Shown here one piece after another: positions 15,401 to 64,000 of a stretch of 64,000 bases of DNA. A program made the position numbers and the translations under genes. The notes beneath the pieces were generated by a model. It was not told the DNA's origin, made no database searches, and worked only from the letters and a program-made list of their open reading frames with translations. Source of the DNA: Sphaerolaimus hirsutus (lineage: Eukaryota; Nematoda; Chromadorea; Monhysterida; Sphaerolaimidae). Within the stretch, counting starts at the first letter, position 1, and every line of letters begins with the position of its first letter. The stretch covers positions 8,370,001 to 8,434,000 of the forward strand of contig OZ038454.1 in assembly GCA_964036195.1 (NCBI GenBank), given 5' to 3'.

Positions 15401-18400
15401 TTTTTTTCTACTTCATTGGGGCCATTTTTGCCGTTTTTTATTTTTGTCGGTTTGGGTCTCGTTAACGAGACCCGAACCGACAAATCGAGCAAAAATGAGG
15501 ACAGTCGCGTGCGTCTTGTTTCAGTTTGTTGGCACATTGCCGTCACAAGCTGTGAACGTGTTTTTATATTTTATTGTGCCAACATTTATCATTCCAATGG
15601 AATGGCAGGTTTTGCACATTTTTGCACTCATGAAAGCAATAGAATGGCAGGTAGATATTATTAGGGTGTAAACTAAGTTTCTTATTTTATTGCCATCTCA
15701 TACAAATATTTACACATTCCTGCATTCCATTCTGTTGTACACATGTTTACACATTCCTTCACCGGTTTTGATGCCCTTCGAGTATGTTTGGGTTTGGGGT
15801 CTGGGCTTTGACGAAAAAATTTTGTTTCCTCGAATATTCAGCCAGTCCTGAGATAAGGGGGGTCTCAAAAACATGGTCATTTTGCATGGCCGATCTGGCC
15901 GATCAACTTCCAAGCTTAATAATGTGTCCATTTCTGGGCCGATTCTGACCGTTCAACATTCAAAATGATCGGCACAACCTGTAGAGTACATTTTTGAGGT
16001 TGGCTTAGTGATGTTAACATCCCTTATACCGATTTGACGCAGTTTTTCAACACAAAAAATGTTTCTGAACATGCTATCATATAGTTTAGACGACGAGAAT
16101 TCATACCGGAAAATTATTTCTCTCAATATCTCTTTCCAATAAAACGTTAAACTGCCACTTCAGAACTTCAAAAATCACTAATCCGACCTCAAAATGGCAT
16201 CTACAGGTCATGCCAATCATTCTGCCAAGTGTTGAACAATCAAAATCAGCCCAGAAATGGCCGAGTTATTAGCCTTCAAATTCTATTGACTGGATAGGCC
16301 ATGTAAAATGACAACCGTAAATCCTCGAATAAGTCCCCCCCCCCCCTCGAAGCAGGCTGAGGAAAAAATAACTCCCCCCCTCGAATAACTCCCCCCTATT
16401 TTATGGGTGGGAAAGGAGTCCACGTATAAAAAAACGTATTTATGTATACGTTCATAAAAATTATGCATTGTTTTGCATTTGATGCACACTAACATTGATT
16501 TCATTCCATGAATAATGGGATTTCTATACTGGCTTAGACCTTTATGCAACTAACTTAACCCCATTCAGTTGATGTATTGATCATGCTTTTTACTCAAAAT
16601 TCCGACGAAAAAATAACTCCCCCCTCGAATAACTCCCCCCCCCCTCGAATAAGTCCCCCCTCAAAAAATTCTGAGGAAAAAATAACTCCCCCGGGGACTT
16701 ATTCAAGGATTTACGGTATTCTTTATTGGACCCCTTTTATCGCAAGACTGGGGGATTATTCGAGGAAACAAATTTTTTTGTCATAGCCCAGACCCCAAAC
16801 CCCAACATACTCAAAGGGCATGAAAATCAGCCAACATACAACAGAATGGGAATATTCATTTCTGAGATTGCAAAACATATTAGAAACATAGTTTACACCC
16901 TAATACATTGGAAATGAAATATACATACATTACATATTTCGTGAAATGAGTTGATGGAAACATGCTTGAATATTTTGATGAAATAATAATTCCCCCCTTG
17001 AATAATTCCCCCCCTCAAATAGTTCCCCCCTCAAAAATGTCTGATGAAATAATAATCCCCCAGGGGGATTATTCAAGCAAATACGGTATATACCATATTA
17101 CCTCAAATTAATCCCCCCTTTGAATTACCCCCCCTCGAATTAACCGCCCTCAAAATGGGCTGGGGAAATAAACCCCCCCCCTAGGGCTCGAAACTCGATT
17201 TTTTTCAAACTCGAGTTTGAGTCGCAACTCCAAATTTTTTCCGGTCGAGTCGGCGAGTCGAGTCAGGCAAGCCAGTGAAAAGTCGAGTTGAGTCAAATTT
17301 TTTTTTTGAAAAATATGTTAAAAAGTTCATATCAAAATTGATTTTTAGGACATTATTCAATGGAAACCCTGACTCGAAATTTGCCAATATTTCGAGTCGA
17401 GTCAGGCAAAAACCTCGAGTCTCGAGTTTGGGCCATATTTCTCCGGTCGAGTCAGACGAGTCGAGTCGGTACCCTGTTTTACCCTCGAGTCACGAGTCGA
17501 GTCGAGTCGAGTCGAGTCGAGTTCGAGCCCTACCCCCCCCCTCGAAATACCCCCCCTCCAGAATGATTTACATCATGTATACAATGTACATGATGTATTT
17601 ATTACTGCTTATTTGTATTGCAGCTGCACATAGACTTGTTTGTGTAGCAATCTACGTTTTTATGTCCAAATACATCCTGTTTGGATGCATTCATTACCTG
17701 TTTTGGGTATGAAAATGCCAACTTTTTACTACTATCCTTACGGAAAATTTCTGACAAAATAATAAAAAAACCCTCAAATTGAACCCCACTCGAATTAACC
17801 CCCCTCAAATTTTTCTGGCAAAATAATAAACCCCCGTGGGGGTATTTCGAAGTAATACGGTAAGTATGTAGCTAGTATAAACCCTGACATTTTACAGGGT
17901 CTTTTACATGACACATGACATTTTACACTTTACAGGGTATTTTACATGGTCTTGAACTGCCCCCTGTGGGTATTTCAAGGAAGATAAATTCAAGGGGGGG
18001 ATAATTCGAGGTAATACAGCATATGCATTCCCCCTATCACTCACTACACCACTCCCTCATACACTTTTATAAGCAACTGTGGTAAAGTCGGTGTCGTCAC
18101 AAAAAAATGAAAAAAACACGTTCGCAGCTCGTGGCGACAATCGACAACAAAAATCAGGCTCACATAAAAACATTTTTTTTCTTGTGACGACAAGCGCTCA
18201 TCATCGCATTGTCGCCAATCAAAAGCTTGTGCCAACAACAAGATTTTTTCGATCAAAAAAAGCGAACCGACAACATCAAATTTTTCAAATGCTCATAACT
18301 CTGGAACAAAAAGGCCGATTTATCTGAAATTTGGCATGTGAGTGGACCTAACTAATGAGTATACTTAACTGTTTTTTCTTGCAGATATGGAACTTCATTT

Positions 18401-30400: not shown

Positions 30401-33400
30401 CGATTGTGCCTCCTATCTTTTGCATTGAAGCATCCTTAGCGTGCAGTTCTCTCGAAATTGTATAGGTGGAGATAAAGATGTAGAGAAAGGAAGGAAAAAT
30501 TGCACTGTCACTGGCGGGAATCGAACCCGCTACTCTCGTTTAAAACTCGAGCGCCCTAAACGCTGCACCGCCGTGGCGGCTGGGCTCTAGTATTAGGGGT
30601 TCATATGCTGCGTGGGCGCATGTGCTACCACTCACGGCATTGCCCGGGGGGAAGATGTCATCGCTGACATACTTGCGGATGTTGTGGTGAGCAGCGAATG
30701 GAGATAACGTGAGGTGCGGGTTCCATTCCCGATAGTGGCAGTGCAAATTTTGCACTCTTCAGAGTGTGCCGCTGTTCGAACGAAGTGATTCGTCTTGATG
30801 TGTTGGTCAAAGACCTAAATGTATTGGATACTCATGTGGTATTGGGGAGGGGGGCTTTATTCAGCCCCCTACCACTCATCTGCAAGATTCACGCACCCCC
30901 GAAATCGCTGCGCGCAGTCGACCCCGGTATCGACTGGCGAGCAGCCGCCGCGACTGCCCACGCCGCCGTCGCACAGCAAACTGCGGCCGCCCGCCGCGCC
31001 CAGCTACGACCTGGTGCCAATCCCAGACCCTGTAAGATGTCAAATGTCACGCAAAGTGTCAAAAGTCATGTAGAATGCCCTGCAAAATGGCAACCGAGTT
31101 GCCATTTTGCAGGGCATTTTGCATGACTTTTGACACTTTGCTTGACATTTGACATTTTGCAGGGTCTGGGACTGCGCCCTGGTGCTGCCGTCGACCAGCC
31201 AGTCGGGCGCGTCTGCAGGGTCGAAACGCCCGCCGCCGCCCGTCGCGCCCAGTTATTTACCAGAGGATTGTGCTACGTTGGAAGGCAGCGTTGGTTTTTT
31301 TAGTGCGAGTGCATTGATTTTGCAGTTTAATTTTGTTCTGCGCGTGACTTTTCGGGCCGGTCCCGATGTTTTGATGTTTTTTTGTAGAACGTCTGAGATC
31401 TTTTCGTATCGAATGTTGATGAAAATTTGAGGAGTGTGTTGATATCCAACGATTTATCGAACCTTTTGAGGAATTATCGAAAATGGGTATTGAAAAGACA
31501 TAAAAATAATCCAAACCTCAGAAATGGTTCACTTTTAGTTTCGATGCTAAACGGACAGATGACTTTATTTTACAGGGTTCGACAATTGGCAATTTAACTT
31601 TGAAAATGTCTGGCGTCGCCGTTCGATCTCCAGGTGAGTACCGTTAAAAATACACATTTTTTGGTCAGAATGGTTGGATCTACGGTTAGAGAAAATTAAT
31701 TGTTTTCAAACCCCTAGATTTGAAAAAATTGACTGGGTAATTGATTGAAAAAAAACGTAAAATATAGTGCATGTCTACCAGAAATTTTGCCCTTTGATTT
31801 GAAAAATCAGTATTGTTCTAAATACAATTTTTATAATCAGTTGACAAAAATCAAGTTCCATCCCTACTGTGATCAGTCATTTCTACTTCCACTGCCATGT
31901 TTTGTGAACTCATAAGTAGATAATCGGCATCCAATGAAACCTAAACACCAATACTTATACCAAAACATAAGTAAATAAAATATGCGAATATAAATTTCTT
32001 ATCATTTTGTTTATTTTATACTTTTAATCTTTTTATTATATTATCCTTTCAGCGGGAAATGTCATTGTCGGACCCACGCTGGAAGCGGACTTGCCAAATG
32101 CCGAAATTCCTAATAGATTGGGTAGTTGGGACGCGATCAACGCGCTGCCGTTCGACGATCCCAGGCGGATGATCGAGGTATTTTTATCATTTTTTTTATT
32201 TTGTAGGGTTCAAACTAGGGTGTCAAATTTCCGTTTTCCGTTTCCGCTTTCCTCAAGCAATTTTTTTCTGTATTCCATTCCGTTTTCCGGAAAGTGCAAA
32301 AAAAATTTCCGTTTCCGCTTTTCCGCAGGCAAAATTCTTTCCGTTTTCCGCTTTCCACAGGCAAATATTTTTCCGTTTTCCGGCAAGTGCAAATATTTTT
32401 CCGTTTCCGTTTTCCGGCAAGTGCAAAAACATTTCCGTTTCCGTTTTCCGTAAAAAATTTTTGTTGACGTTTGAAAATCAATGTCACTTCTCGCGAATTC
32501 ATGTGTGTGTTTTGAAAAATTTGAGAAAAAAGTTTCATGTCTCTACACCAGAACTTGTGCCAAAATCCCGATCATACAAACTCCGAAAAAAAAACATCTC
32601 GTGTTTTCAATCCCGATCCCGACAATTCTGAATACCGATACCGAAAAGTGAATCCCATTTGAACCCTAGTCACACTTATCCCCCTAAATCACACTTTTTC
32701 CACCCGAAAACGACCACTTGGCAACCTTCCAACCGCAGATAAAGCTGGTCAAGTTCCACTCGCTCGACCAGTTGCACGTAATGCCCCGGGAGGCGGCGTC
32801 GGCGCTCAGCCAGCTCAAGTGCGACTTGGAGTCGTTCTACGGCGTCAACGGCAATTGGGACAATCCGCAGTACTCTGTGGATGCGTCCGAACTGCGGAAG
32901 GTGTCGCAAAGTCGTCGCTTTGCGTCCGCGGTCGTCCTGGTGACTGAGACGAGCGGCGTCACTTTTTGCAGGTGTGAGGGTGCGGTTTTGATTGAGGTCT
33001 TGTGTTTTAGAGTGTGATGGGTCGGGTGCCATAAGGAAATAAAAAGACCACTTATATGTAAGTTGCGGAAGTAATTTGGAAGTGGCAAGTGAAGAGAAAA
33101 ATGGGAAGTAAATCAAGTTAAGATTAAAAAGTCAAGACGAATGACTAGTTCTGATATACACAATTACGAATGACAACTTCTGACAAGTTCTAAATTGACA
33201 AAATAAAAAAATAAAAAATAGAAATCTTCAAAAATTTGTTTTGACCCTTATTTGAACGGTTCCATCCTTTTTCAATCATTTTTACGTTTTTTAAATTATA
33301 TTTTATTTTTGCGGTTTCTTGTCATCTGCCACTCGTCTCTTCACTTGCGGGATTGACTCCACATTTGAACGCGTTTAAGTGTAACTACTATTACTGAAGA

Positions 33401-36400: not shown

Positions 36401-39400
36401 GCCAATTCTGGCCCCCATGTGCTCCATGAATCGCTTGGGATAGTGGATTGTACACTTTCTAAAACCTATGTTTTTCTCAAAAAAAATGTTTCAGTTTGAT
36501 CAACAACACCATCATTGTGTGGGGGTTCTGGGGACTCTGAGGGTGTAAAAAAGTTGTACATACTTTGAATCTACCAATGTTAAAAAAACTTTTTGGTCTC
36601 AAATGTCCAGAAAAAAAATTATTGAAAATTTAAATTTCATTGGGAACAAAAATTTGTTTGGAATTCTCATTTATATTTTCCAGAAAAAAATGTGAAAAAT
36701 TTTTATTATGCATCATAGGTGGCCTGAGGGAGGTGCCCCCTAGGGTATATACCGTATTTCCTCGAAATACCCCCCCCCCCCTCGAAATACCCCCCCCCCT
36801 CGTTTGACCCCCCCCCTCTCGGGACCACTATGAAACAATCACCCCCCGGGGGGTATTTCGAGGAAATACGGTATAGTAAATACTTGGGGGCACCCTCACA
36901 CAAGATGAAAGCCTAACAGCTTGCACGTGGGATTTGTAAAAGACAATTAAGTGATTTTCTCATTTATATTTTCCACCAGTTTACATCAATTTTCGAAATA
37001 TTCTCATATGCAAATGATCAGCCCAATCTTGCTCAAATTTTGTGTCAATGTTGGGTCAATATTTCGTTACATTGTCCCTAAATGGCACCCCCCCAGCACT
37101 CCCCTGGTCAGCCGTGACAGCCTTCTATATATTTTTTCCGATTTTTTTTCTGGCAAATATAATTGGAAAATTTCGGAATCCCACGCAGAATATTGCTGCG
37201 GGAAAGTGCGCTGCCATTTTTGGCATGCTGCCAACACAAGCAATGGATACGCTTGTGCTGGCAGTTTTATGATGAAAAAATCACAAATGGCTCGCTCAGA
37301 GCGGCACATAGGTGCAGGGTTATTTTTACCCCCTGCTGTCACCCCACTGCTGCTGCCCCGCAAAAATCCATCCCAAATTGCAGATATCAGCCACTTCATA
37401 ACATTCAAACTTATTGAGAACTTTATAAGTGCAAACATTTTGATTGTGATTGCAAAAACCACAAATTTATACTTTCTGGGAATGACCTCTTCATCTGTCT
37501 GGCCCATTTACACAAAATACAGGACACATTTATATGTTTAACATATAACATATATGATATATGTTTAACAGATAAATGTTGTCTGAATTCAATGGGCACT
37601 AGCATTTAATGATTTGCATCCAGATGCTGCAGAGGCTGGTCACGCTTTTATGGAAATGCTGTCTTTGAACAGTGGCATTTCCACTGATGGCCATAAATGC
37701 AGACTTTGTGCAACAATGTGGTGCGGGACCAGCCACATGTTGCTCATGACACTTAGGAAGCCAGTCCTGGCCCCCTTGTGCTGTATGATAAGCCTAGGGC
37801 TGTGTAAGGCACATTAGTTCCAATATATGTTTTAATCAAAAAAATAATTCAGGTTTGATCTTCGGCAAAATTTTGGTGTGGGGATTGTGTGGATTGTGAG
37901 GGGGTGGAAAAGTTGCAGGAACTTACCATCTCATATGTCAAGAAAAATCAGTGGCCTAAACCATCCCCAACCAATTTTATAAATAAATCAAATTTCAGCC
38001 TGAACAAAAATTTGTATGGATTTTCCATTCATATTTGCCAGAAAAAAAACACGAAAAACAATATTTTCAGCAGCACCCTCACAAGATGACAGCCTGACAG
38101 CTTGCATGTGGGGGTTTTAAAACATGGTTTTGTGAAATTTTGTGTATTTTCCATTTCAATTTTCCACCAGTTTAAGTAGTGAATCCGTGTATACTCCAGT
38201 CACTTTACACCCTGCATGCGTGGTTCCCGCTGGAACAGGGACGTATCCAGGATTTTTGAGCGGGGGGGGGGCTGTTTGTTTACGGAGGCCGGCGAGCGGG
38301 GGGGGGGGACTCAGCCCCCCCCCTAAAATTTTACGTAGTGTGGCGGAATGGCGCTGGCGCCACTAGTAGGCGCAACGCCATGGCGCCATTGGCGTTGGCG
38401 CCAGCGCCATGGAACGCTGTAAATGTATGTAAATATACATACAAATACAGATAACAGCACAAAATTGTGTATATTTATAATGATTTCGGCCACAGGGAGA
38501 AAATCTGCTAATAATACACCACGTCTGGTGAAAAATGCGCGCTTGCGCGCAAAATTTTTTTACACTGACATCGAAAAAGTGGCATTTTCCGGACAATTTC
38601 TGGTCTCACCCCGGAAGGGGGGGGGGCTGCAGCCCCCCCCCCCTGGATACGGCCCTGCGCTGGAAGCGTGCCAACGATTTTTTACGCATGCGATTGTCAC
38701 AAAAAGTTGAAAAAGTCGACTCTGTTATAACGCTATACGTGAACTTATTCACAACAATGATTTTTTTCGTCTTTCATACAACAATCGTATGGTTTGTTGG
38801 TATCGTATGGTTATCATCATTGGCACGCTTCCAACGTGAGACATAAATGAGTGCGAGGGCATAGTATCATGTCCGCCGAGTATACTAGGGTGCTGTAGAA
38901 ACACTTTTAGCACACGCAGGGTGTTGTATGCACTTATTTATCCTGGCGCCCTATTTTTCAAATGGCGCCATGTCGCCCTTGGCGCTTGGCACCCACTTTC
39001 TGATTGGCGCCATGGCGCCCTTTTTTCTGGCGCTTTTCCATCACTAGTGTGCAGCCTGTAAACTTTTCGCAATCCATTTGTACACTTTGATCCAACTTTT
39101 TAGCACTTTATATTTACCTTTTTCACAGGTGGAGACGTGGGTACAACGCATCGGACAATTTGTAGAGGCGGAAGACTCAGAATCTCTGTTCGCTATTTTT
39201 TCGACGGCTTATAAATGCAGGGAGGAGGACGTAGACACATACGGAAAAGTGGTCCAGGCTTTTGCGCACAACGATTTTTCACCTGAAGGTGCGTTTTTCC
39301 GTGTTTATTGCGTATTTTATGGCGCACAGCGCACTCAAAATAGGCAACGGCGGTTCGAACGGTTTTTGCAAGGTCGGAATTGAAAAGGATTGGAATTAAA

Positions 39401-39628
39401 AATCGTCCGAACCGACCCAAATTGCAGTATTTTTTTCAGTCTTGTCGTAATTAAAATCGTCCGAACCGACTATAATTCCGCCCGGGCGTAAATATAAAAA
39501 AAACGTTCGAACCGCCCTTGCCAATTTTGAGTGCGCGCTGCGCCTATTAGTACGGTATTTTTAATTGAAAAAAAACATTTACAGACCTGGTCAGTTGGTA
39601 TCAAGAGAACACCCAGTTCAGGGATTAA
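9399..39628 (+). CDS. LOTUS (OST-HTH) and Tudor domain protein, 19 exons, 930 aa
   Basis: Exons: 9399-9493, 9573-9666, 19316-19597, 20292-20411, 22479-22631, 23167-23226, 24481-24849, 25030-25255, 26935-27089, 30918-31013, 31203-31289, 31576-31633, 32053-32177, 32739-32900, 33466-33693, 33912-34004, 34421-34606, 39129-39288, 39585-39628. They sum to 2793 nt with every phase matching. Architecture: LOTUS 1 (about residues 5-95), an RGG-rich stretch (about 97-130), a Pro/Gln/Tyr-rich linker with 10-residue repeats (about 158-391), a divergent second LOTUS-like domain (about 397-485), a Pro-rich linker, an extended Tudor module (about 600-865), and a helical C-terminus. In the family (TDRD5/Tejas, TDRD7/Tapas, nematode LOTR-1) LOTUS domains bind Vasa-type helicases and Tudor domains bind methylated arginine in germ-granule proteins. 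That function is inferred here from the domains. The donors after 19597, 25255, 27089 and 31289 are weak (GTTCG/GTTCA/GTTGG), so those ends are less certain. Confidence 0.82.
9573..9666 (+). CDS. Exon 2: core of LOTUS 1
   Basis: Acceptor TTCGCAG, donor AGG|GTGAGC. It encodes DLNGIAIPYKDFGCQ then SLEEFVKKLEGEGHLR. The G-x-x-IPYK-x-x-G-x-x-SLEEF signature is the most diagnostic LOTUS segment. About 9.6 kb of intron follows. Confidence 0.82.
10135..11335. repeat. Cluster of TACGTTTACG-type elements
   Basis: Several diverged copies (about 10135-10330, 10625-10745, 10805-10945, 11150-11335) share TTTACG / AAAGTACTC / AACAACTCT motifs. Others are at 42510-42995, 45470-45620, 51055-51430 and 52617-52712. 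This fills part of the 9.6-kb second intron of the LOTUS-Tudor gene. Confidence 0.55.
11499..11880. mobile_element. 5'-truncated CAGGGACG-type element
   Basis: The right end GGATACGGCCCTG matches the hAT-like copy at 38236-38657 and the interior is similar. The left terminus is missing. Confidence 0.6.
11905..12253. mobile_element. AGCCGG...CAGCTCAGCGGC MITE
   Basis: Ends GCATTACAGCTCAGCGGC and GCCGCTGAGCTGTAATCC. It is the same family as 48403-48815. Confidence 0.7.
12277..12727. mobile_element. TAGGGATGG hAT-like element carrying a minisatellite
   Basis: Left end TAGGGATGG, right end CCATCCCCA. The flanks CTCAGAAC and CTGAGCAC are a decayed 8-bp duplication. The 18-bp array at 12369-12548 lies inside. 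Confidence 0.6.
12369..12548. repeat. 18-bp x 10 minisatellite
   Basis: Ten head-to-tail units AGGGATCCTTTCCTTTTC, identical except for one change in the last unit. Each has a BamHI site. The unit is six codons, so it is open in several frames; there is no sign that it is translated. Confidence 0.92.
13248..13740. mobile_element. ACCGTATTT MITE copy
   Basis: Ends ACCGTATTTTCTCAAATA and an inverse AAAATACAGT. G-rich arms lie around a 200-bp core. Confidence 0.65.
13752..15373. mobile_element. ACCGTATTT element interrupted by a GGCGCC element
   Basis: The flanks of the insertion join into the same core sequence as the uninterrupted copy at 55596-55990 (GTAGACGGTATAAAC across the junction). 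Confidence 0.72.
13980..15087. mobile_element. GGCGCC-rich element (TAGTGATGG ends), 1.1 kb
   Basis: Ends TAGTGATGGAA and CCATCACTA, with GGCGCC/AGGCGCCAAGG arrays near both ends and a unique core of about 700 bp. No duplicated flank is visible, unlike the copy at 34989-39046. Confidence 0.75.
15661..16903. mobile_element. TTAGGGTGTAAACTA element, interrupted
   Basis: Inverted ends TTAGGGTGTAAACTA.GTTTCT. The interior resembles the 25320-26588 family at low similarity. It is interrupted by an ACCGTAAATCC MITE (16314-16718). Confidence 0.68.
16314..16718. mobile_element. ACCGTAAATCC MITE inside 15661-16903
   Basis: Ends ACCGTAAATCCTCGAATA and GGATTTACGGT. C-rich CCCCCCTCGAATAA units lie in both arms. 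Confidence 0.72.
17183..17531. mobile_element. GAGTCGAGTC-rich element
   Basis: Ends AGGGCTCGAA and TTCGAGCCCT, made largely of GAGTC units. It is inserted into a C-run of an ACCGTATT-type element (about 17090-17865). Confidence 0.68.
17880..17965. mobile_element. Fragment of the introner-like family
   Basis: TTTTACAGGGTCTTTTACATGACACATGAC matches, in pieces of fewer than 20 nt, the arms at 63600-63760. Confidence 0.5.
19316..19597 (+). CDS. Exon 3: end of LOTUS 1 and RGG-rich region
   Basis: Acceptor GCGCGCAG. It opens LRSVNGTLMVDGVPTKDV then SHVVNLVQRTKSK, the final strands and helix of the LOTUS fold. It then runs into SRRGGRGGGQ and further Gly/Arg-rich sequence. RG motifs of this kind are typical arginine-methylation sites. 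The donor is uncertain: GTTCGC after 19597 keeps phase 0; otherwise the frame stops at 19607. Confidence 0.75.
19665..19892. mobile_element. Palindromic element with a second palindrome at its centre
   Basis: Outer arms: CGCTTCACACAGCGATTTT and its inverse. Inside (19725-19833) is an ACCGTATTTCTTCTAATAG...GAAATACGGT palindrome. Confidence 0.65.
20292..20411 (+). CDS. Exon 4: disordered linker
   Basis: Acceptor TACACAG, donor CCG|GTGTGT; 40 codons in phase 0. It encodes VPPGGSWASAVRNVSS, then NPAVVRQPLNQIQQPAF. Low complexity, Pro/Gln/Val-rich, consistent with the linker after the first LOTUS domain. Confidence 0.65.
20679..21365. mobile_element. TTCAAACGGGAT element, copy 1
   Basis: Ends AGGGTTCAAACGGGATCCC and TCCCGTTTGAACCCT. 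The arms are tandem CCAATCCCGATCCCGAAA units. Other copies: 22067-22457 and 32205-32667. Confidence 0.75.
21394..21910. repeat. Repeat with GGATAGATAGCTGAGCGGCC units
   Basis: The same family recurs at about 20100-20260, 34640-34800, 50040-50190, 50585-51040, 58640-58950 and 62917-63412. The GATAGATAGCT motif and C/G runs are shared. Confidence 0.6.
22067..22457. mobile_element. TTCAAACGGGAT element, copy 2
   Basis: Ends AAGGTTCAAACGGGATTG and TCCCGTTTGAACCTT. It ends 21 bp before exon 5 of the LOTUS-Tudor gene. Confidence 0.72.
22479..22631 (+). CDS. Exon 5: Ser/His/Pro-rich linker
   Basis: Acceptor TTCAAG, donor TAC|GTGAGT; 51 codons, phase 0. The residues include LDSSHQTTQRPAVVAH and SARPPPY. 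The exon begins only 21 bp after a TTCAAACGGGAT element, so the acceptor lies almost at the edge of a transposon. Confidence 0.62.
23167..23226 (+). CDS. Exon 6: 60-nt Met/Pro/Tyr microexon
   Basis: Acceptor ACGTAG, donor CCC|GTGAGC, phase 0. It encodes 20 residues that begin MYPGYRMPFPYMG and end in a PFYPYP motif. The Tyr/Pro/Met-rich composition recalls phase-separating linkers of RNA-granule proteins. Confidence 0.68.
23384..24246. mobile_element. TATGGATGGCC/GGCATCCCTA element
   Basis: The interior shares TATAGCCATAGAATGGCTG with the element at 1414-2092. It fills the intron between exons 6 and 7. Confidence 0.6.
24481..24849 (+). CDS. Exon 7: linker with a 10-residue tandem repeat
   Basis: Acceptor ATTTGCAG, donor CAG|GTGAGT; 123 codons. 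After a Ser/Gln/Tyr-rich start, about 24619-24849 is made of roughly eight copies of a 10-residue unit with consensus V-G-x-[AV]-P-x-Q-Q-P-x (e.g. VGTAPVQQEK, VGKAPMQQPK). The DNA unit is 30 bp, so length changes stay in frame. Strong GC3 bias supports this frame over the shadow frames. Confidence 0.8.
25030..25255 (+). CDS. Exon 8: second, divergent LOTUS-like domain
   Basis: Acceptor TTTTAG; donor G|GTTCGT (phase 1). It encodes LVSDLEQLVKFQTNSS, GNIAVAYGRLKSEYAATYG and, later, IMAFVERYMAGVLHAYF. The helix, G-N-I-x-V, L-x-x-E-Y-x-x-x-Y-G and F-V-x-x-Y order follows the LOTUS pattern seen in exons 1-2, at lower similarity. Assignment as a LOTUS domain is an inference. An intact 1.27-kb transposon begins 65 bp after this exon. 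Confidence 0.72.
25320..26588 (+). mobile_element. 1.27-kb Tc1/mariner-type non-autonomous element, copy 1
   Basis: Inverted ends start CACTACCGTGCAGAATAG and are flanked by TA on both sides (25318-25319, 26589-26590). There is no transposase ORF. It lies in the intron between exons 8 and 9. A near-identical copy in the opposite orientation is at 40835-42106. Confidence 0.85.
26935..27089 (+). CDS. Exon 9: end of LOTUS 2 and Pro-rich linker
   Basis: Acceptor CTCTCAG, proposed donor GGC|GTTCAA. The split codon with exon 8 gives Asp, then SRGILQLRLHPDHPDSV, a plausible last beta strand of the second LOTUS domain. It continues into TPRRGAPPPPAPKYD. The donor is weak; another candidate lies about 25 nt downstream. 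Confidence 0.62.
27561..28284. repeat. 362-bp tandem duplication with 27-bp sub-repeats
   Basis: 27561-27922 and 27923-28284 are near-identical. Most of each is built of about 27-bp units such as ATGGCACCCCCTGGGGACC. The sub-repeats continue to about 28460. Long ORFs on both strands are a result of the 9-codon period. Confidence 0.85.
28450..30035. repeat. Satellite-like array
   Basis: Roughly a dozen diverged units of about 100-190 bp, each with AGTGCATAT, ATCAGAAACCC, TTTCACAAATTG and CAGGGTTATGGTAATG. It is located in the intron between exons 9 and 10. Confidence 0.8.
30508..30583 (-). ncRNA. tRNA-like sequence (not a working tRNA)
   Basis: On the minus strand it has a B box GGTTCGATTCC, a T-arm GCGGG/CCCGC and an A-box-like GGTGCAGCGTTTAGG. 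The anticodon arm is CTCG...CGAG with a 9-nt loop and the acceptor stem does not pair. It is best read as a tRNA-derived module. Confidence 0.5.
30672..30745 (+). ncRNA. Second tRNA-like arm, opposite strand
   Basis: GGTGAGCAGCGAATGG and GCGGGTTCCATTCCCG mimic A and B boxes in the order of a tRNA. The rest is diverged. Confidence 0.4.
30918..31013 (+). CDS. Exon 10: Pro-rich linker
   Basis: Acceptor GCGCGCAG, donor CTG|GTGCCA; 32 codons, phase 0. It encodes STPVSTGEQPPRLPTPP and ends RPPAAPSYDL. The donor GT is the first dinucleotide of an inserted inverted-repeat element (31014-31178). The reading frame continues uninterrupted if that element and one CTG are removed. Confidence 0.66.
31014..31178. 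mobile_element. Introner-like inverted-repeat element in the LOTUS-Tudor gene
   Basis: Begins GTGCCAATCCCAGACCCTG and ends GGGTCTGGGACTGCGCC. The arms pair almost along the whole length around GGCAACCGAGTTGCC. CTG lies on each side (31011-31013, 31179-31181). Removing element plus one CTG leaves an open frame across exons 10-11. Confidence 0.75.
31203..31289 (+). CDS. Exon 11: Pro-rich linker, continues exon 10
   Basis: Acceptor ACCAGCCAG, donor AGC|GTTGGT; 29 codons. It encodes SGASAGSKRPPPPVAPSY then LPEDCATLEGS. The 21 nt between the element end and this acceptor (31182-31202) are also open in the same frame, consistent with one ancestral exon split by the insertion. Confidence 0.6.
31576..31633 (+). 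CDS. Exon 12: 58-nt exon before the Tudor module
   Basis: Acceptor TTTTACAG, donor CCAG|GTGAGT (phase 1). It encodes GSTIGNLTLKMSGVAVRSP. The phase fits exons 11 and 13. Confidence 0.62.
32053..32177 (+). CDS. Exon 13: start of the extended Tudor module
   Basis: Acceptor CCTTTCAG, donor GAG|GTATTT. It encodes GNVIVGPTLEADLPN, then RLGSWDAINALPFDDP and RRMIE. The downstream intron is filled by a TTCAAAC element (32205-32667) with a TTCCG element inside it. Confidence 0.72.
32205..32667. mobile_element. TTCAAAC element, copy 3, with a TTCCG element inside
   Basis: Ends AGGGTTCAAAC and TTTGAACCCT; the inner TTTTCCG-rich part (about 32217-32467) opens AGGGTGTCAA. Confidence 0.62.
32739..32900 (+). 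CDS. Exon 14: Tudor module, first SN-like strands and helix
   Basis: Acceptor AACCGCAG, donor AAG|GTGTCG; 54 codons. It encodes IKLVKFHSLDQLHVMP, then ALSQLKCDLESFYGVN. The V..F.S...L.V ... L..L...L..FY pattern is the usual lead-in to an extended Tudor domain. Ending at 32900, not at the longer open frame, is chosen because it keeps phase with exon 15. Confidence 0.76.
33466..33693 (+). CDS. Exon 15: Tudor core
   Basis: Acceptor ATTTCAG, donor GAG|GTTTGA; 76 codons. It encodes PPILRALVDLSSFD, then VVVLQVDFGDQERLNV, then EIRKLDARFAQTPVTLVPMQ. The RA-x-V ... V-x-F-G-x-x-E ... L-x-x-L-x-x-x-F motif is diagnostic of a Tudor domain. Tyr-to-Phe (DFG for the common DYG) and Asp for Asn in the aromatic-cage loop could affect methylarginine binding. 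Confidence 0.86.
33912..34004 (+). CDS. Exon 16: extended Tudor, SN-like helix
   Basis: Acceptor TTTGCAG, donor CAG|GTGAAC; 31 codons. It encodes EIDPSVEAVSYWEAL then DTEVRSYCDTRQTYAQ. Confidence 0.75.
34421..34606 (+). CDS. Exon 17: extended Tudor C-terminal strands
   Basis: Acceptor CCGCCGCAG, donor GAG|GTTCTG; 62 codons. It encodes LQKWCGESCALVGDIVEL, then VSTTLSTQLVHMQLASRV and PPLVVPIE. The L.G.VVEL ... L....V..QLASR order fits the SN-like tail of an extended Tudor domain. Confidence 0.75.
35568..38174. mobile_element. AAACTGGTGG element nested in the GGCGCC element
   Basis: Starts AAACTGGTGGCACATATAAA (with a second start at about 35601) and ends TTTTCCACCAGTTT. CATTTATATTTTCCACCAG also occurs at about 36960-36980, so it may be two joined copies. 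Confidence 0.55.
36751..36872. mobile_element. Minimal ACCGTATTT MITE (122 bp)
   Basis: ACCGTATTTCCTCGAAATAC to its exact inverse, with C/G runs between. It is the shortest intact copy and the deepest level of nesting. Confidence 0.8.
38236..38657. mobile_element. hAT-like MITE (CAGGGACGTATCC)
   Basis: Ends CAGGGACGTATCCAGG and GGATACGGCCCTG, with a perfect 8-bp duplication CGCTGGAA (38228-38235 and 38658-38665). Confidence 0.85.
39129..39288 (+). CDS. Exon 18: helical C-terminal domain
   Basis: Acceptor TTCACAG, donor GAAG|GTGCGT. It encodes VETWVQRIGQFVEAEDSES then LFAIFSTAYKCREEDV and VVQAFAHNDFSP. It is separated from exon 17 by 4.5 kb that is nearly all nested transposons. Confidence 0.76.
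39585..39628 (+). CDS. Exon 19: last exon and stop
   Basis: Acceptor ATTTACAG; it completes Asp, then LVSWYQENTQFRD and TAA at 39626-39628. The phase fit and the absence of another way to end the frame make this convincing although it is only 44 nt. Confidence 0.74.
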
Positions 39629-40702: not shown

Positions 40703-40834
40703 ACGCCAGGAAAAGTGTTTACATAAGCCCAAGAAAATTGCACTTGAGGCGCCAGTCCCGCGCTAAAGACAAAGAAATTCATCTCACCCAATATTTTCCG
40801 TTTTTGAACTGTATACGTAACTGACCTCAAAATA

Positions 40835-42106
40835 CACTACCGTGCAGAATAGTTGAGACTTTTCACACATAGAGAAACAGTAGGCTGGGGGTCCACTGCA
40901 CTTTTTTGCTTCCCAATTTCTTGTCCCTTGCCCAATTTTGATGCCGTTTGAGTATGTTGGGGTTTGATGCTGGGGATACAATGAAAAATTTTTGTTTGCT
41001 CAAATAAACCCCCAGGCCCAAGATAAGGGGGTCTATAAAAAGATGGTCAATAAATATACAAAAAAATGGGCAATCTGGATGAGTGTCTTTGAAGCTTAAT
41101 AACTCAATCATTTCTGGGCTGATTTGAATCATTCAACACTTCAAATGATCGGGACAACCTGCAGATTCTATTTTTGTTGTCGGTTTAGTGATGTCTAAAT
41201 TCCGTATGTCAATTTGACCCAGTTTTTGAACATAAAAAATAAATTTTTTGGACATGCTATCATATACCCGATGACAATGAGGATTCATTTAAAACAGAAA
41301 TGAGTTCAATATCTCTTTCCAATCAAAAGTTATGGCACTTCAAAGTTTTCAATGGTGTCTAAATATTTAACTACTCAATATGCTCATTTTACTGGGGTTT
41401 GCAGCATGAAAATTTTGTTATTGAACAGTCTATAACATACTTTAGACAGAGAGAATCAATATAACAAAAACGTTTTTTCAATATTACTTTCCAATCAAAA
41501 GTTAAAGCACTCACAAACTTCCATCTTCATTCCATCCAAAATAATTGCACATTGCTCATTCACAGTTGGGCCAACTTTTCTCCCTAATAGAGCAAGGCCA
41601 AAACCTCAAATTTACACACCAAATAGCCCCACCCAGTAGTATGCCTACCCCCATTTCAGAGTTGCTGGCAATGGATGCAAAACTGCAGCAAAAATAAATA
41701 AATGCCACATTTCCATATATGCATCACCATATGCTTTTCATGCTTAGAATGTTTCTTGCTGCACACAGAGCTCAGCGATGCAGGCAAGCAGTTGCCATGG
41801 TGAAAATTTTGTTAAAAAATGAACATAGGAGGTGGATATAGACTTTAAAGTGAGATACTGGGTGGCTACTGCCCAAAACAAGAAAAGTCTCAACTATTCT
41901 GAAACATGAACAAACTGAGTTAATATGTTTGTACACTAGGAATATACACTGATTTGAACTTGAGGGGCGGTCATCCTGGGCATGTGTAGTCAACCCCCCA
42001 GGGTACCCATGTATAGTATCCAAATGTTTTGCATATCAACCATTTCGAAATTCTGGCAACATTAATCACACAGCGCAAAAAGTCTCAACTATTCTGCACG
42101 GTAGTG
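40835..42106 (-). mobile_element. 1.27-kb Tc1/mariner-type element, copy 2 (inverted)
   Basis: Same ends and interior as 25320-26588 in the opposite orientation; TA flanks at 40833-40834 and 42107-42108. Confidence 0.85.
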
Positions 42107-42197
42107 TACATGTCTAGGACTGAGCGGACCGCATGCCTTCCACACAAAGGTCCAAGATACCATAGCGGGGTAATTTACTGTCTAATATTTAGGACTA

Positions 42198-52594: not shown

Positions 52595-55500
52595 CTGGGT
52601 GGTGGCCGTAGTTGCGGAAATGTATTTACGTTTACTCGGAGTACCCGGGTATTTTGGTTATTTATGGTTACGTTTACGTTTTCCAAAAGTACCAGTGTTT
52701 TCACAACTCTGGTGATGGCAATTCATTGGGCATAATTTAGGGGAAGTTATTATCTGATAATTTGTGGACATTTTTTTTGAAAGAACAAACAAAGCGTTTG
52801 GAAAAATGTTGGAAAATGAGGATGGATAGATGGACCACGAATCAATGTTTACACCGACAGCACGAAGCTTTTATACACAACTACACCGCTTTTATCCAAA
52901 ACATTCTACACAACACACACTACTTGAGCCTAGCAGCCAACTGGAAAATTATGTTTTGAATCCCTCTTAGTTAATAGCAGTGCAAACTTTTTGAAAAACT
53001 TATAAATAGTTGACCCAGACAAAAGTTACCAACAAATGTTAACCAAAATTGGGGTTAAGCTCATTTTTCAGTCGCCGTGGCTGCAGTCAACCAGTGTGAT
53101 TAGCAGCCACATTACACCATTGGCACAGTCCCAATAAAAACCCACAACCCTAATAACCCCCCCCCCAATCTAACCTGGTCAGTCTGCAAGCTGATAACGC
53201 GCTGCTGCAACAAACCGCCCACTTTGATGTCCAGGAAGTGCACCGGCGGCGCCGACTGCCCGTCGGGCATGGACTGGGGCGCGGCGGTGACTTTGTGCGT
53301 GGACAGGATCTCGGCTAGGCGCACGTCGAGGAGCACCTCCTGGAGGGGTGAGGGGGGTTTAATCGATTGGAAGGGTTTTTAGATTTGAGTGAATCTGGGG
53401 GTTTGTTGAACCTGAGTCCTGAGTTGAACCCGACTTCAATTTGAGTATTTTGATGGATAACGGCGAGTGAGAAATTACGCACCAAATATGCTGATAGCGA
53501 GTATTTAAAATATCGAGATCGAGTAAAATGTGAAAACATTTTAGCAAAAAAATTGAGATAGGACATGATAATATGTGAAATGCATAATTACATAATTTTC
53601 ATTATATTCAGTGCAAACTATAGAAATCTTTTGGCAGTACTTAATAACACACGATTGACAAGAAAGAGTAAGTAATGAATAAAAAATCAAGTTACCTATC
53701 AGTAATAAGAAAAGTAAATTTGTAAATTAGCATATTAAGTTTACTTGAGTTACCAACACAAATTTACCCGTCACTTAACACTTTCTTGTCACTTATCCAC
53801 TCCCAGAAGTGGTCCCAGTTCCTCAAAACGAACTCACATGCGTAATGATATGCAGAAACTGCAAACCATGCTTATTCACAGCCAATAGGCACTCGCCCTG
53901 CACTCTAGCGTCGCTCGCATTAGCCACGTAGAAAAAGGTAGATCCAAACAAGGGCCAGCGCTGTAGGGTTTGCAGGAAGGCTGCCCTCGCCCTACGCGCC
54001 TCCATGGCCGGCGGCAATCCGGACAGTTTGGCGTTGACTCGCTCCGCCCACTGGTCGGCGGTGACGTGTCGTAGGCGGTCGCACACGCGCGGCAGCAGTT
54101 CTACTACTTGGCGGCTGGGGTTGGGGGTGTATTTTAAGTTTTTGAATGTTTTTTTGGGGGGTTCATTATCACCCTTAAACCCTCAACCCTTGAATTTCAT
54201 TGTTTCAGGGGTAACTTGTTGGTGTCAAAAAAGTGCGCGTTTTTTATCTCTGGTGGTATTTATTTCTGAGGTGAAGTGACACGTGTGGATATGAAAGCAA
54301 CAAATTACAGAATCCCTCGTTTAGCTGTGTAGTCGTACATACCGTATTTCCTCGAAATACCCCCCCTCAAAACGGGGCACTATGAATTTGTGGTCCGGGA
54401 AATGCATAACAGACGTTCAAAAAACTTACTGTGTTACGTTAGAACATCGTTTATACCATCTACATCCTTATATAAGGCTGTAAAAACTTATAAATGGTGG
54501 TTAATGTTGCATTTTTCACGTTTTTCTCTCAAAATTTTCACTCTGAAAAAATAAACCCCCGGGGGGTAATTCGGGGAAATACGGCTCACGTCGTATTCAT
54601 CTCTTTTCCATCCAATTAACAATTCCGGCATGAATCCCCAGTATAACAAGCCCGCCCACAATCAAGTTCTCAACAACAGACACCCCAAGGCGCACGCAGG
54701 GCATTTAAATGTGCCCTCAGTCGCATGTCGGGCGCCCTACATACAAAGCGCCCTAACCCTAACCTGTTAACAGTGTTGGGCCTGTCTGCGCCGTCGTCGT
54801 CGGCGTAGTGCAGCAGGGCGGCCAGCCGGGCCACGTCGTCCATGACGGCCGCGCTGAGCGAGTCCACCGTGCGCATGGGCACCAGCAAGCCCTCCAGGTA
54901 GTCGGGCACCACCTGCGTGAGCGAGTAGGGCATACATTTTTATCACGTGAGCTTGTAAGCCAGACAACCCCAAGCCCTGTAAAGTGTAAAGTGAAGTGTC
55001 AAAATTTATGGAAAATGTCATACAAATTTGTCAATTGTCATTTAAAGTGTGAGGCAAACTGCCAATTGTCATACAAAGTTCAGTATTGAAATATTTTCTT
55101 TTTTTGCGTTTTGATTGACATTTGACACTTAACTTTACTTCTTACAGGGCTCACGACTGCCCCTTGCGCACAAATAAGGTTTCTTTCAATTTATATAACA
55201 TTCATCAATATTATCAATACTTGCATGCCTAAATTGAGTTAGGTGCTTGTGGCTGAATACCGCAAATGTTTACAACTCAAGCGCTTTCAACACCAGCAGA
55301 TGACAATGACAACAAACCAATAGATCCCAATAAAAAAATCGATCAAACCTGGAAAAACATGACATCGATGTACAAATCATTATCATAACGCAGCGGGTGC
55401 ACCCAGGCGGTTCTCTTGAGCAGCAAGAAATAGTCTTTTTGGCGGTGTTCCAACTCGGTGGTCACGTCCAGAATGTACTGGTCGTTGGACAGAAGGCGCA

Positions 55501-58500
55501 TGGCATTCTCTGTGGGTTATTATTGTCTTTTTGTTGCTATTTTATTTGATATTTATGGTGGGCTTGGGAAGTCGTTAGATATGGTAAATATAATTACCGT
55601 ATTTCCTAGAATTACCCCTGGGGGGGGTATTTTTTCAGAGTGGGAATTTTTTTTGGGGGGGGAGGGTTAAACGAGGGGGGTATTTCGAGGGTGGTATTAT
55701 TTCGCCAATTTTTTTTGAAATCCCAGTACTAAATCGTTGTTTGTAACGTACACAGACGTCAAAAAATGCAACAAAAACCCTCCATTTATAAAACTCTTTA
55801 GACTTATATAAGTACGTAGACGGTATAAACCTTGTTCTAACATAACACAGTGATTGTTTTGCGTTTCCCGGAGCTTTTGTTATCTACGTTCTCTAAACAC
55901 TGAATTTGGGGGGTATTTCGAGGGTTTTTTTAAGTTCATAGTGTCGATTTTGAGGGGGGTATTTCGAGGGGGTATTTCGAGGAAATACGGAACTTATAAC
56001 ATTACATTGGGGAACTATGATGCGGAACGTATCACGCGACTCAATTCGTTAAAATACGGTAACATTCTTCATACAGCGTTCCGCCCGACCAGAATATAAT
56101 TAATACGTATATACTTATAATCGGCGGACCGCAAAGTACGCGCAGAATTCTGCCATAATTTGATGAATAAAATCTTGTGATAAATTTCGTAATAAATAAT
56201 TCCACAGTAAAAGCTAAACATTATGATGAAACAACTGTATAACCTTTGTTCACTATTCAGGTGGGTTACGGTAGGTTCCCATATTAAGTGTGATAGCAAA
56301 AACCGAATCTAACCAGCTTCGAGAATGCAACACAGCGCGAACTCCTGCTGCTCCACAGTCGACCGAACATTGAGTTCATCGCACAAATCCTGTATAACCT
56401 CCTCGACCACGGTGGTCGATTTAGTGTTGATCACTTTTTTGTGGCCACCCGGCAAATGGTACAGCTGTCGTTTCAGGTGCTTGCCCAACTGCGTGCCCGA
56501 TGGGGCGGGGGTTAAATTGCTTTGATGTTGGTTTAGATAGGGGAATCGGGTACCCGATAAGGGGGTGCCCGAAAATTTCATGGCTGATGTCAAGTGCGGT
56601 ATTTTAGGATAGAAATGTGTCATTTGTGCATTTCTGTAGTACTGCAATTACAGGCTAGTTTGGTGAGAATTGCAGGGATTCTAAATGTGTATTTACATTG
56701 TTTGTTTGATTTGACCAGAGGAATGCTAGAGTTTATTTTAGATTGACGCTGAAATTTTTGGTGAAATTGAAGCTACCATATTACTGTGAATGAATACTTC
56801 CTATTAGCTACCATATTATGAGCTACCATATTAGCCATGTTAGCTTTTGCTACCATATTAGCCTGAGTGATTTTTCTTCGTTGTTTTACTCAGGATTTAT
56901 TTAAGCGGAACGAGTGATTCGAGATACTACGGTTGATATTTATGCTAATCCTTTAAATATAGTCGCTTATTTCAAGTGGTTTTGCACCTAACACAATCCC
57001 ATGATTGGAGGGTTGCACGTTTTTGAATGAAATAAATTTGGAACTAGAAAAATCAAGTGAAGAAAGAGTGATTCATTATGCACACTTTTCGAATCACTTG
57101 AACAGTGAGGTGCCATTTTATCGACCCGGCCTTCCTGTTTTTGAATTGGTTAAAATACATACCTACATACAGTAAGATATGCGCGACTATTCGAACAGAC
57201 TGGGAATGTTTGTAAATAAATAAAAGAGTAAAAATAGACGAAATATCCTACATTGCGCACATGCAAACACGCAGTTGATATGTTTCTAGAAGACATAAAT
57301 TGATACATGAAAAACTTACAGTGATAGCCTCAATTTCCTTGGGTCCCATGAGAAATTTACGTCCGCCGTATTTGAATGTCTTCTTCAAATTGTGCAAGCA
57401 AACATTCGCCGTTCCTGAAAAAAAAAACGACCGCAGTGAAGAAAAATAAACACAAAAAAAACTTTTTTTAACCCTTCACAAACCCTGAAAAGCCCTCCTA
57501 TCATCAGCTGCAGCGTCGTGCAAATACTTCATCAAATAGGGCTTCAAAACGGGGCTGCAATCAAAGTAAGCGCTCAAAATCGAAAAGAGTCTCCAGCCCC
57601 TGGTGGCGCTGTCGGGCCGGTGTGACTTGTTACTGGTGGTCTGTTTCATGAGCTGGGGGCACTTCCAAACCCTGTAAAATGCCCTGTAAAATGTTAAATG
57701 TCATGCAAAGTGTCAAAGTCATGTAAACTGCCCTGGAAAATGGCAAACGTATTTACGTTTGCCATTTTTCCGGGCATTTTACATGACTTTGACACTTTGC
57801 ATGACATTTGACATTTGACATGGCATTTTACAATGTCTGGGATTGGCACCTGGCAGTAGACCTCGTCGCGCAGGGGCGCGTTCCTGTAGCACATGAGCAC
57901 CAAGTCCTGGAGCACGTCGGTCAGGGATTGACCCTTTTTGAGCGGCTGGTCGCCCATGAAACGAAGCACGCCTACGGATGGATGGATATCATGAAGTGAA
58001 GGTATAAAAAATGCGCATTTAAATATGATACAAATTAAATATGTGAATATGATGAACAAATAAAAAAATTATGGTCTCAAATTAGTGTATTCTGAATACA
58101 TTTGCGTTTTTTGCACGACAGAAATTCGACGTTGTCGCGAGCCCTGAGTATTATATTATAAAATTTTTTGACTTGGGTATTATATTTTATTTCAGGTGTC
58201 AGTAATTGTCATTTCCACATTGCTGTACAATGGCTGAATGATAACTGTACATTGCTCTTTCAAATTTGGTGTACATAAATTCTGATCTTCTAAATAAACA
58301 TTCTTTAGAGGCAAAAAATCCGACGTTCCCCCATACCCTGAGTAAATATATAATATTTTTTCAGCTTAGGTGTTCGTAATTTTCACATTCACATCTCCTA
58401 TTATATTCATTATAGATGGGATTGATATTAAAACAGAACAGGGTAAAGTTGATATTGAAAACACTAGAGACTAAACAAAATTGCCACTTCTGATGTTCTA

Positions 58501-62815: not shown

Positions 62816-64000
62816 GTGGGTGGATTATCAGTTTCTGGTGCCAGTCACAGACCTAAATACTAAACTTCACTGTATAATGCCGTGTGTCATGTAGAGACAC
62901 TGTAAAATATCAAATCAGGGGTCTCCTAGGGGGGGCTGCGGAGGGGTTGCCCCCCAAATCCCCCAGCTATCTATCTATCCCGGAGACCGCTCAGCTAAAT
63001 ATCTATATATCCGGGAGGCAAAATTTTTGCCTATCTTTCCCCCAAGTCGGCCAGCTATCTACCTATCTGGACCGATTTTTGAGAAATTTTGCGCCAATTT
63101 TCGCTCAAAATCGCTAATTTTCGTACCGTTTTATACTCTTTCAATTTCAAAATCGCGACTTTCGCCTATACACATGTTTATATACCTATTTTTACCATTT
63201 TTAGCCTATTTTAGCTACTTTTAACCTGTTTTTAGCGATTTTTTCCCCTTTCTGCCTTCTATGCATTGGAAAAGCGTACATTTTTTGCCCCAACGAGCCC
63301 CCCCCCCCCTAGCCCCTCCAGCAAAATTTTCAGCTATGTATCCCTCCGGAGGAGCGATTTGCTAACTATCCAGCCCCCGCGAGGGCCAAAATCTTGGATA
63401 CCCCTGTATCAAATGTTGTGCAAAATGCCATGTAAAAGAGCCATAAAACGTAAGATGTCATGCAAAACGTAAAAAATCGCAAAAATCGTCGCTGCGGTGA
63501 CGATTTTTGCACTTTTTACATTTAGCGTGCCATCTGACATTTTACAGGATCTTTTATATGCTATTTTGCATGACATTTGAAACTTTGCATGACATTTGAC
63601 ATTTTACAGGGCCTGTTACATGACACCTGACGTTTTACAGGGTCTTTTACATGACACATAGCATTTATAGGGTATTTCACATGACATTTTACAGTGCATA
63701 TTACATGACACATGGCATTTTACAGCGCATTTTACACTTTACAGGGTCTGGGATTGCCCCTGGTAAATATGTGACGATGATTGCGTATGTGTGTATCAGT
63801 ACATATTTACGCACAGGCATTAAACAGTCCATTGCTAGCACAATACCCACAGAAAACTTGCATATTTATGCCATCTAAATTATGATGCCCCCCCCCCCAA
63901 AACGCAGTTCATTCTGGATAGCGGTGAATCGACTGTCTGCAGTGCTGGGTAGCAGATTAGGTGGGATGGTATTTTCCAAGCCCCGTATCCACCTGGTGTC
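62493..64000 (+). CDS. Serpentine (7TM) GPCR, N-terminal part, runs off the window
   Basis: Exon 1 is 62493-62815 and exon 2 is 63908 to beyond 64000; the split Ser codon fits. The order is a short extracellular N-terminus with one N-x-S/T site (NFS), TM1 (YMLLSMLGLLLYTVFAVAF), TM2 (HPFYILVIHLAIGDIGHLA and on), and TM3 running into SFWIAVNRLSAVL, then FSKPRI in the second intracellular loop. A-V-N-R at the TM3 end takes the place of DRY, and the F-S-K loop is typical of nematode chemoreceptor families (Srx/Srt type). It is presumably a plasma-membrane chemosensory receptor. The intron carries an introner-like element interrupted by another repeat. The gene is on the opposite strand to the myosin. 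Confidence 0.72.
62838..63759 (+). mobile_element. Introner-like element in the GPCR intron, interrupted
   Basis: Begins GTGCCAGTCACAGACC and ends GGGTCTGGGATTGCCC, with CTG on each side (62835-62837, 63760-62). A GATAGATAGCT repeat (about 62917-63412) has landed inside it. Extra tandem CATTTTACAGGG units occur at the right end. Confidence 0.65.
63908..64000 (+). CDS. GPCR exon 2 (cut by the window end): TM3 and loop
   Basis: Acceptor AAACGCAG after a C-rich tract. Reading from the second base it gives SFWIAVNRLSAVLGSRLGG then MVFSKPRIHLV. It is too short to be found as a standalone ORF, but the phase and the TM3/loop pattern support it. Confidence 0.66.

What the first reader, a model, noticed from the sequence alone, without database searches (positions are those of the whole stretch)
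57653..57852. A transposon copy is exactly one intron of the myosin gene
Seen: the minus-strand intron 57849-57653 consists of an inverted-repeat element (GTGCCAATCCCAGAC...GTGCCCC) plus a 3-bp CAG. The preceding exon ends CAG as well. So a 3-bp target duplication (CAG) flanks the element: the upstream CAG sits before the GT supplied by the element, and the downstream CAG is the AG acceptor. Splicing removes element plus one CAG and restores the uninterrupted sequence coding YCQLMKQTT, a conserved part of MyTH4. Known: introners in other eukaryotes gain introns by this type of mechanism, with one splice site from the element and one from the duplication. I infer this is an animal introner.
Basis: partly seen in the sequence, partly recalled or inferred. 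Interest (0 to 1): 0.92.

Follow-up and report, generated by a model that had tools for sequence, protein, structure and literature searches.

The report
Hairpin transposon sitting as an intron
A small hairpin transposon has landed inside a protein-coding part of an animal-like myosin gene, and its ends plus the copied landing site look like the start and end of an intron, so the cell may simply splice it out; whether it really does is untested.

Summary
On the minus strand, 57849-57656 is a 194-nt hairpin transposon (MITE) flanked by CAG/CAG. Removing the element plus one CAG (57849-57653, 197 nt, GT...AG) rejoins a MyTH4 domain in frame: 79.9 bits, against at most 66.5 for seven other in-frame splice choices scored.

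Four more copies or fragments lie in the window. The three copies that keep the left end start GTGCC and have a CWG target duplication. CWG plus a GGG-type repeat end resembles the published NuwaI group of PIF/Harbinger-like (PHIS) transposons; that is a lead, not a membership, since no transposase was found in the frames scanned.

"Animal introner" goes beyond the evidence. Only 1 of 5 copies/fragments is an exact intron; one lies in another coding frame on CTG, where no AG is supplied. An exonic copy would show GT...AG ends about 1 time in 4 by chance. The terminal acceptor is weak, and the stronger internal acceptors break the frame with the end donor. No genome, RNA or relatives were available.

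Best reading: one introner-like intron gain, in which a CWG-targeting MITE supplies GT and its target copy supplies AG.

The parts
57656..57849 (-). MITE: long inverted arms, left end GTGCC, right end (reverse complement) GGGGC; the proposed intron minus its last CAG
57850..57852 (-). target-site copy 1, CAG, last codon before the insert
57653..57655 (-). target-site copy 2, CAG, which would be the AG acceptor
57850..57972 (-). upstream exon of the MyTH4-FERM myosin (GVLRFMGDQ...DEVYCQ); 5' boundary set by eye
57488..57652 (-). downstream exon part (LMKQTTSNK...RRAF)
31014..31178 (+). second copy, 165 nt, GTGCC left end, flanked by CTG at 31011-31013 and 31179-31181; inside a reading frame SYDL|VLPSTS upstream of a sub-threshold Tudor match
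62838..63759 (+). third copy (423 nt without the nested 491-nt piece and one 8-bp duplicate), GTGCC left end, flanked by CTG at 62835-62837 and 63760-63762; at, or 22 nt after, the end of a GPCR-like exon
62916..63406 (+). piece nested in the third copy, 8-bp target duplication TATCAAAT, ends CAGGGGT...ACCCCTG (hAT-like; label recalled)
17885..17963 (+). right-end fragment of the family, followed by CTG (17964-17966)
54963..55163 (-). degenerate copy in an intron of the same myosin gene, no clear target duplication; limits set by eye

Best explanation
A non-autonomous DNA transposon (MITE) with an asymmetric GTGCC/GGGGC inverted repeat inserted into a CAG in the coding exon of a MyTH4-FERM myosin and duplicated the CAG (shown by sequence). 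The element's own left end gives the GT donor, context CAG|GTGCCA, and the second CAG gives the acceptor (shown as sequence). The spliceosome then removes the element plus one CAG and leaves the protein unchanged, so the insertion behaves as a newly gained intron (inferred). The stem of the hairpin would bring the ends together and bury competing splice sites inside the element (predicted).
For: Exact CAG duplication and GTGCC left end in the 3 copies that keep it. Frame-exact restoration of MyTH4, the best score of 8 in-frame choices tested: 79.9 against 51.3 to 66.5 bits (8 of the 49 open pairs). Joined domain 111 bits against 15.8 and 50.7 apart. Unspliced, the insert shifts the frame (197 nt). 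The exact donor scores 3.9, above the next exon's own donor (3.3), on a recalled matrix. Predicted mean unpaired probability is 0.33-0.49 at the two end sites and 0.12-0.26 at the five internal sites examined. The copy looks not brand-new: 7 private changes at 164 compared arm positions. Five myosin exons of 834 nt (limits by eye) are open; with no selection at that divergence 1125 of 5000 simulations stay free of stops, and 31 of 5000 if 0.1 frame-breaking indels per substitution are assumed.
Against: No RNA evidence. The exact acceptor (GGAAGTGCCCCCAG|C) scores -0.5; the three strongest internal acceptors (7.6 to 9.1) all break the frame with the exact donor, and on splice-site score alone the exact pair (3.4) ranks below the 15 open pairs listed. 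Donor positions +4 and +5 are C, poor for U1 (recalled). Given an exonic insertion of this family, GT...AG ends are expected about 1 time in 4. The second copy in a coding frame (31.0 kb) cannot be removed exactly with GT-AG. The age argument rests on four arms of two copies, and variation between source copies could mimic private changes; for the two exons next to the insert alone it is weak (2996 of 5000 free of stops, 858 of 5000 with indels).
Confidence: 0.6

Rival explanations
1. A disruptive exonic MITE insertion that is not cleanly spliced: a polymorphic or damaged allele. The intron-like look follows from any target-duplicating insertion, because removing element plus one copy always restores the frame, together with a 1-in-4 coincidence of GT and AG.
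For: Weak exact acceptor and stronger frame-breaking internal ones. The sister copy at 31.0 kb also lies in a coding frame and has no exact GT-AG solution; 11 of its 49 pairs stay open in frame, none exact.
Against: Flanking exons are open and MyTH4 is well conserved; the copy carries about 4% private changes, so it is probably not fresh.
Confidence: 0.22
2. The element is spliced, but mainly through other sites: internal GTAAAA / TTTTACAGG sites present by symmetry in the arms, or exonic sites, giving altered or non-coding isoforms.
For: Internal sites score better on the recalled matrix: acceptors up to 9.1 and donors at +67 and +93 of 4.2.
Against: Of 157 GT/AG pairs 98 shift the frame and 10 have stops; 49 stay open. 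The internal sites examined lie in the stem. The seven open alternatives scored were lower on MyTH4.
Confidence: 0.12
3. An old intron already lay here and the MITE later replaced or filled it.
For: None found; intron presence in relatives is untested.
Against: Nothing is left of another intron: element plus one target copy make up the whole interval.
Confidence: 0.06

Closest known systems
Introners (Gozashti et al. 2022, PMC9860276)
   Same: A transposon in an exon becomes an intron. Families that carry their own 5' splice site and take the 3' site from the target duplication are described (Fig. 2C legend, Chrysochromulina). Introners are reported in two animal groups.
   Different: Here one exact intron of five copies/fragments in one window; introner families there were found as groups of introns similar up to near both splice boundaries.
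NuwaI group of PHIS (PIF/Harbinger, ISL2EU, Spy) transposons (PMC4482050)
   Same: CWG target duplication, inverted repeats usually starting GGG, reported from 16 animal genomes.
   Different: Here no transposase or Myb/SANT gene was seen in the frames scanned; the left end starts GTG, not GGG; the hairpin arms are longer (97 nt against TIRs of 12-61 bp).
Amoebophrya introner elements (PMC7789003)
   Same: Hairpin introns with short direct repeats across the exon/intron boundaries.
   Different: Those were defined among non-canonical introns of dinoflagellates (1% and 15% of canonical introns in two strains had similar repeats); this one would be GT-AG.
Aureococcus and Micromonas introners, and maize Ds/dSpm splicing (details recalled)
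   Same: DNA transposons removed from pre-mRNA, one splice site from the duplication in some cases.
   Different: Other elements and other target lengths (recalled). The Aureococcus paper looked up was not held.

Membership tests
Introner | element lies within coding sequence with ends at or near both splice boundaries | tested here: met
   57.8 kb copy, GT...AG exact in sequence; splicing itself not shown
Introner | several introns of the genome share the sequence up to the boundaries | tested here: inconclusive
   1 of 5 copies/fragments in the window is an exact intron; no genome held
Introner | RNA evidence of splicing | not testable with these tools
   no transcript data
NuwaI (PHIS) | CWG target-site duplication | tested here: met
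   CAG, CTG, CTG in the 3 copies with both ends; right-end fragment followed by CTG; the degenerate 55 kb copy shows none
NuwaI (PHIS) | TIR usually starting GGG | tested here: inconclusive
   right ends GGGGC, GGCGC, GGGCA, GGGGC; left ends GTGCC; degenerate copy GGGGC at one end, CAGAC at the other
NuwaI (PHIS) | DDE transposase and Myb/SANT gene of the autonomous partner | not tested
MITE | short, inverted repeats, target duplication, several copies, no transposase of its own | tested here: met
   194 nt leaves no room for a transposase

The most novel reading that the evidence does not exclude
CWG-targeting (NuwaI-like) MITEs are built to make introns: every CWG site reads CAG on one strand, so the target duplication supplies both an ideal exon end (CAG|) and a CAG acceptor, and this subfamily carries GT at one end. 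The genome would then hold many such introns, a PIF/Harbinger-type introner burst in an animal.
Probability: 0.27. Interest if true: 0.8.

Novelty: new member of a known kind. Interest (0 to 1): 0.5.

Why it matters
[quoted passage not shown] If spliced, this is an intron caught with its source element, target duplication and restored exon all readable. The CWG rule gives a simple prediction that any genome carrying NuwaI-type MITEs can test: exonic copies on sense-strand CAG with the GT end upstream should survive, the other three arrangements should not.

Tried and rejected
Whole-genome search for copies: no genome is held for this window. The 15-mer terminus gave 36 viral-contig stretches; blastn of the five copies/fragments against all 36 gave one 26-nt match at E 0.005, taken as chance. 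A 22-mer inner terminus gave 0 in viral contigs and 0 in genome contigs. Rfam (gathering threshold) gave 0 and ARAGORN 0, so they did not help to name the organism. I first took the third copy to end at 63749 (so in notebook entry 1) and to sit exactly at an exon end; corrected to 63759, and a stronger donor 22 nt upstream (CAG|GTGGGT at 62816, score 9.7) makes an intronic position equally or more likely. I first took the 31 kb insert to shift the frame; it is 168 nt, frame-neutral, but meets stops when read through. I looked for other hairpin elements forming exact introns: 41 inverted-repeat pairs, 25 shown; of the unrelated ones only 39321-39544 was read beside its gene frame, by eye, with no clear intron-like ends. 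Literature: all 10 searches used. 'introner' with 'harbinger' returned one fungal paper (listing only) and 'nuwai' with 'transposon' three papers (listing), so no link of NuwaI-type elements to introners was seen in this library; most subscription papers are not held.

Full report
What is there. The window is taken to be eukaryotic from its gene structure; no genome is held for it. A MyTH4-FERM unconventional myosin runs on the minus strand from about 58.0 kb down to at least 53.8 kb: MyTH4 111 bits on joined exons, FERM_M 24.3 bits (cut-off 23.8), RA-like matches below their cut-offs, best solved relative myosin VIIa, E 2.5e-12. Exon limits are mine, by eye, and the class was not determined. 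A GPCR-like exon lies at 62.5-62.8 kb, with Srx/Srt matches below the curated cut-offs, and a gene with a sub-threshold Tudor match (21 bits, cut-off 23) lies around 31-34 kb on the plus strand. The organism was not identified; an animal is my inference.

The element. At 57849-57656 on the minus strand a 194-nt hairpin stands between two CAGs inside the MyTH4 coding sequence. It is far from chance: fold z -19.3 as DNA and -18.5 as RNA. Relatives in the window: 31014-31178 (CTG...CTG), 62838-63759 (CTG...CTG, with a nested piece that has its own 8-bp duplication), a right-end fragment at 17885-17963 followed by CTG, and a degenerate copy near 54963-55163 in a myosin intron, without a clear duplication. 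So 3 of 5 show CWG on both sides, 1 on the only end left, 1 not. Shorter, weaker BLAST matches elsewhere were not counted as copies.

Ends. The three preserved left ends read GTGCC; their right ends read GGGGC, GGCGC and GGGCA. GT is therefore most simply an inherited trait of the left end and not a repair made in the myosin gene.

Does it work as an intron? Exact removal rejoins DEVYCQ|LMKQTT. Of 157 GT/AG pairs in and around the insert, 98 shift the frame, 10 meet stops and 49 stay open. Eight of the 49 were scored against Pfam MyTH4: exact 79.9 bits, the other seven 51.3-66.5. Splice-site strength points the other way. On a recalled, human-like matrix the exact donor is middling (3.9; six host donors 3.3, 5.2, 6.9, 7.0, 9.0, 9.7) and the exact acceptor poor (-0.5; six host acceptors 1.0-12.7), and their sum, 3.4, lies below the 15 open pairs listed (3.7-8.6). 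By symmetry the arms carry an internal pair, CCCTGTAA (ATTGTAA in the myosin copy) and TTTT(A/G)CAGGG; using the outer ones together would keep 37 nt and break the frame (listed for the 31 kb copy; the same offsets apply in the myosin copy). RNA folding puts the internal sites of the myosin copy in the stem (unpaired 0.12-0.26) and the end sites in looser context (0.33-0.49), with three flank lengths tried. This is a prediction and cuts both ways, since a branch point must also be reached.

Chance. Removing a transposon plus one duplicate always restores the frame, so that alone proves nothing. With GT fixed at one end and a CWG target, one quarter of exonic insertions give GT...AG. The window has two copies inside reading frames: one fits (57.8 kb), one does not (31.0 kb, CTG). 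All three left-end copies lie with the GT end upstream relative to the neighbouring gene as I read it, a small number. CWG sites are 46.1 per kb in a hand-picked exon set of 2,928 nt and 25.2 elsewhere; 8.1% of the window's CWG sites lie in those exons.

Age. Among the four arms of the two best copies, the myosin copy differs from the three others where these agree at 7 of 164 positions, the 31 kb copy also at 7 of 164. If these changes arose after insertion, a dead gene would rarely keep five open exons of 834 nt: 1125 of 5000 simulations with stops alone, 31 of 5000 with an assumed 0.1 frame-breaking indels per substitution. For the two exons beside the insert alone the figures are 2996 and 858 of 5000. 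This leans towards a working, hence spliced, gene. It is weak evidence because source copies may differ and the indel rate is assumed.

Compared with known systems. Functionally it is like introners that carry the 5' site and borrow the 3' site from the duplication (PMC9860276: abstract, sections 5, 6, 7 and 9 and passages read). Family-level membership is not shown. By target it resembles NuwaI (PMC4482050: section 7 and passages); no transposase was seen, but only selected frames were scanned. Amoebophrya introners (PMC7789003, passages) and non-canonical introns of tunicates (PMC13326754, passages) are looser parallels.

Verdict. A single introner-like intron gain is the most likely reading, about 0.6. 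An introner family in this animal is possible and testable, but not shown.

Noticed in passing
62916-63406: A 491-nt piece with 8-bp target duplication TATCAAAT and ends CAGGGGT/ACCCCTG, hAT-like (label recalled), nested inside the third copy; similar stretches occur near 21.7 and 50.6-51.0 kb, and at 58.7 kb by way of those.
   Followed up: partly
31011-31181: Second copy of the family inside a proline-rich reading frame; frame-neutral 168-nt insert with stops, so this gene is either spliced in an altered way or broken.
   Followed up: partly
39321-39544: A different hairpin element (47-nt arms, 89% complementary) overlapping the 3' part of an open frame that follows a good acceptor ending at 39128.
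   Followed up: partly
25318-26592 and 40831-42108: A 1.29-kb inverted pair, 94.6% identical, about 14 kb apart, on either side of the Tudor-like exons.
   Followed up: no
27560-29999: Dense overlapping tandem repeats with periods from 27 to 442 nt.
   Followed up: no
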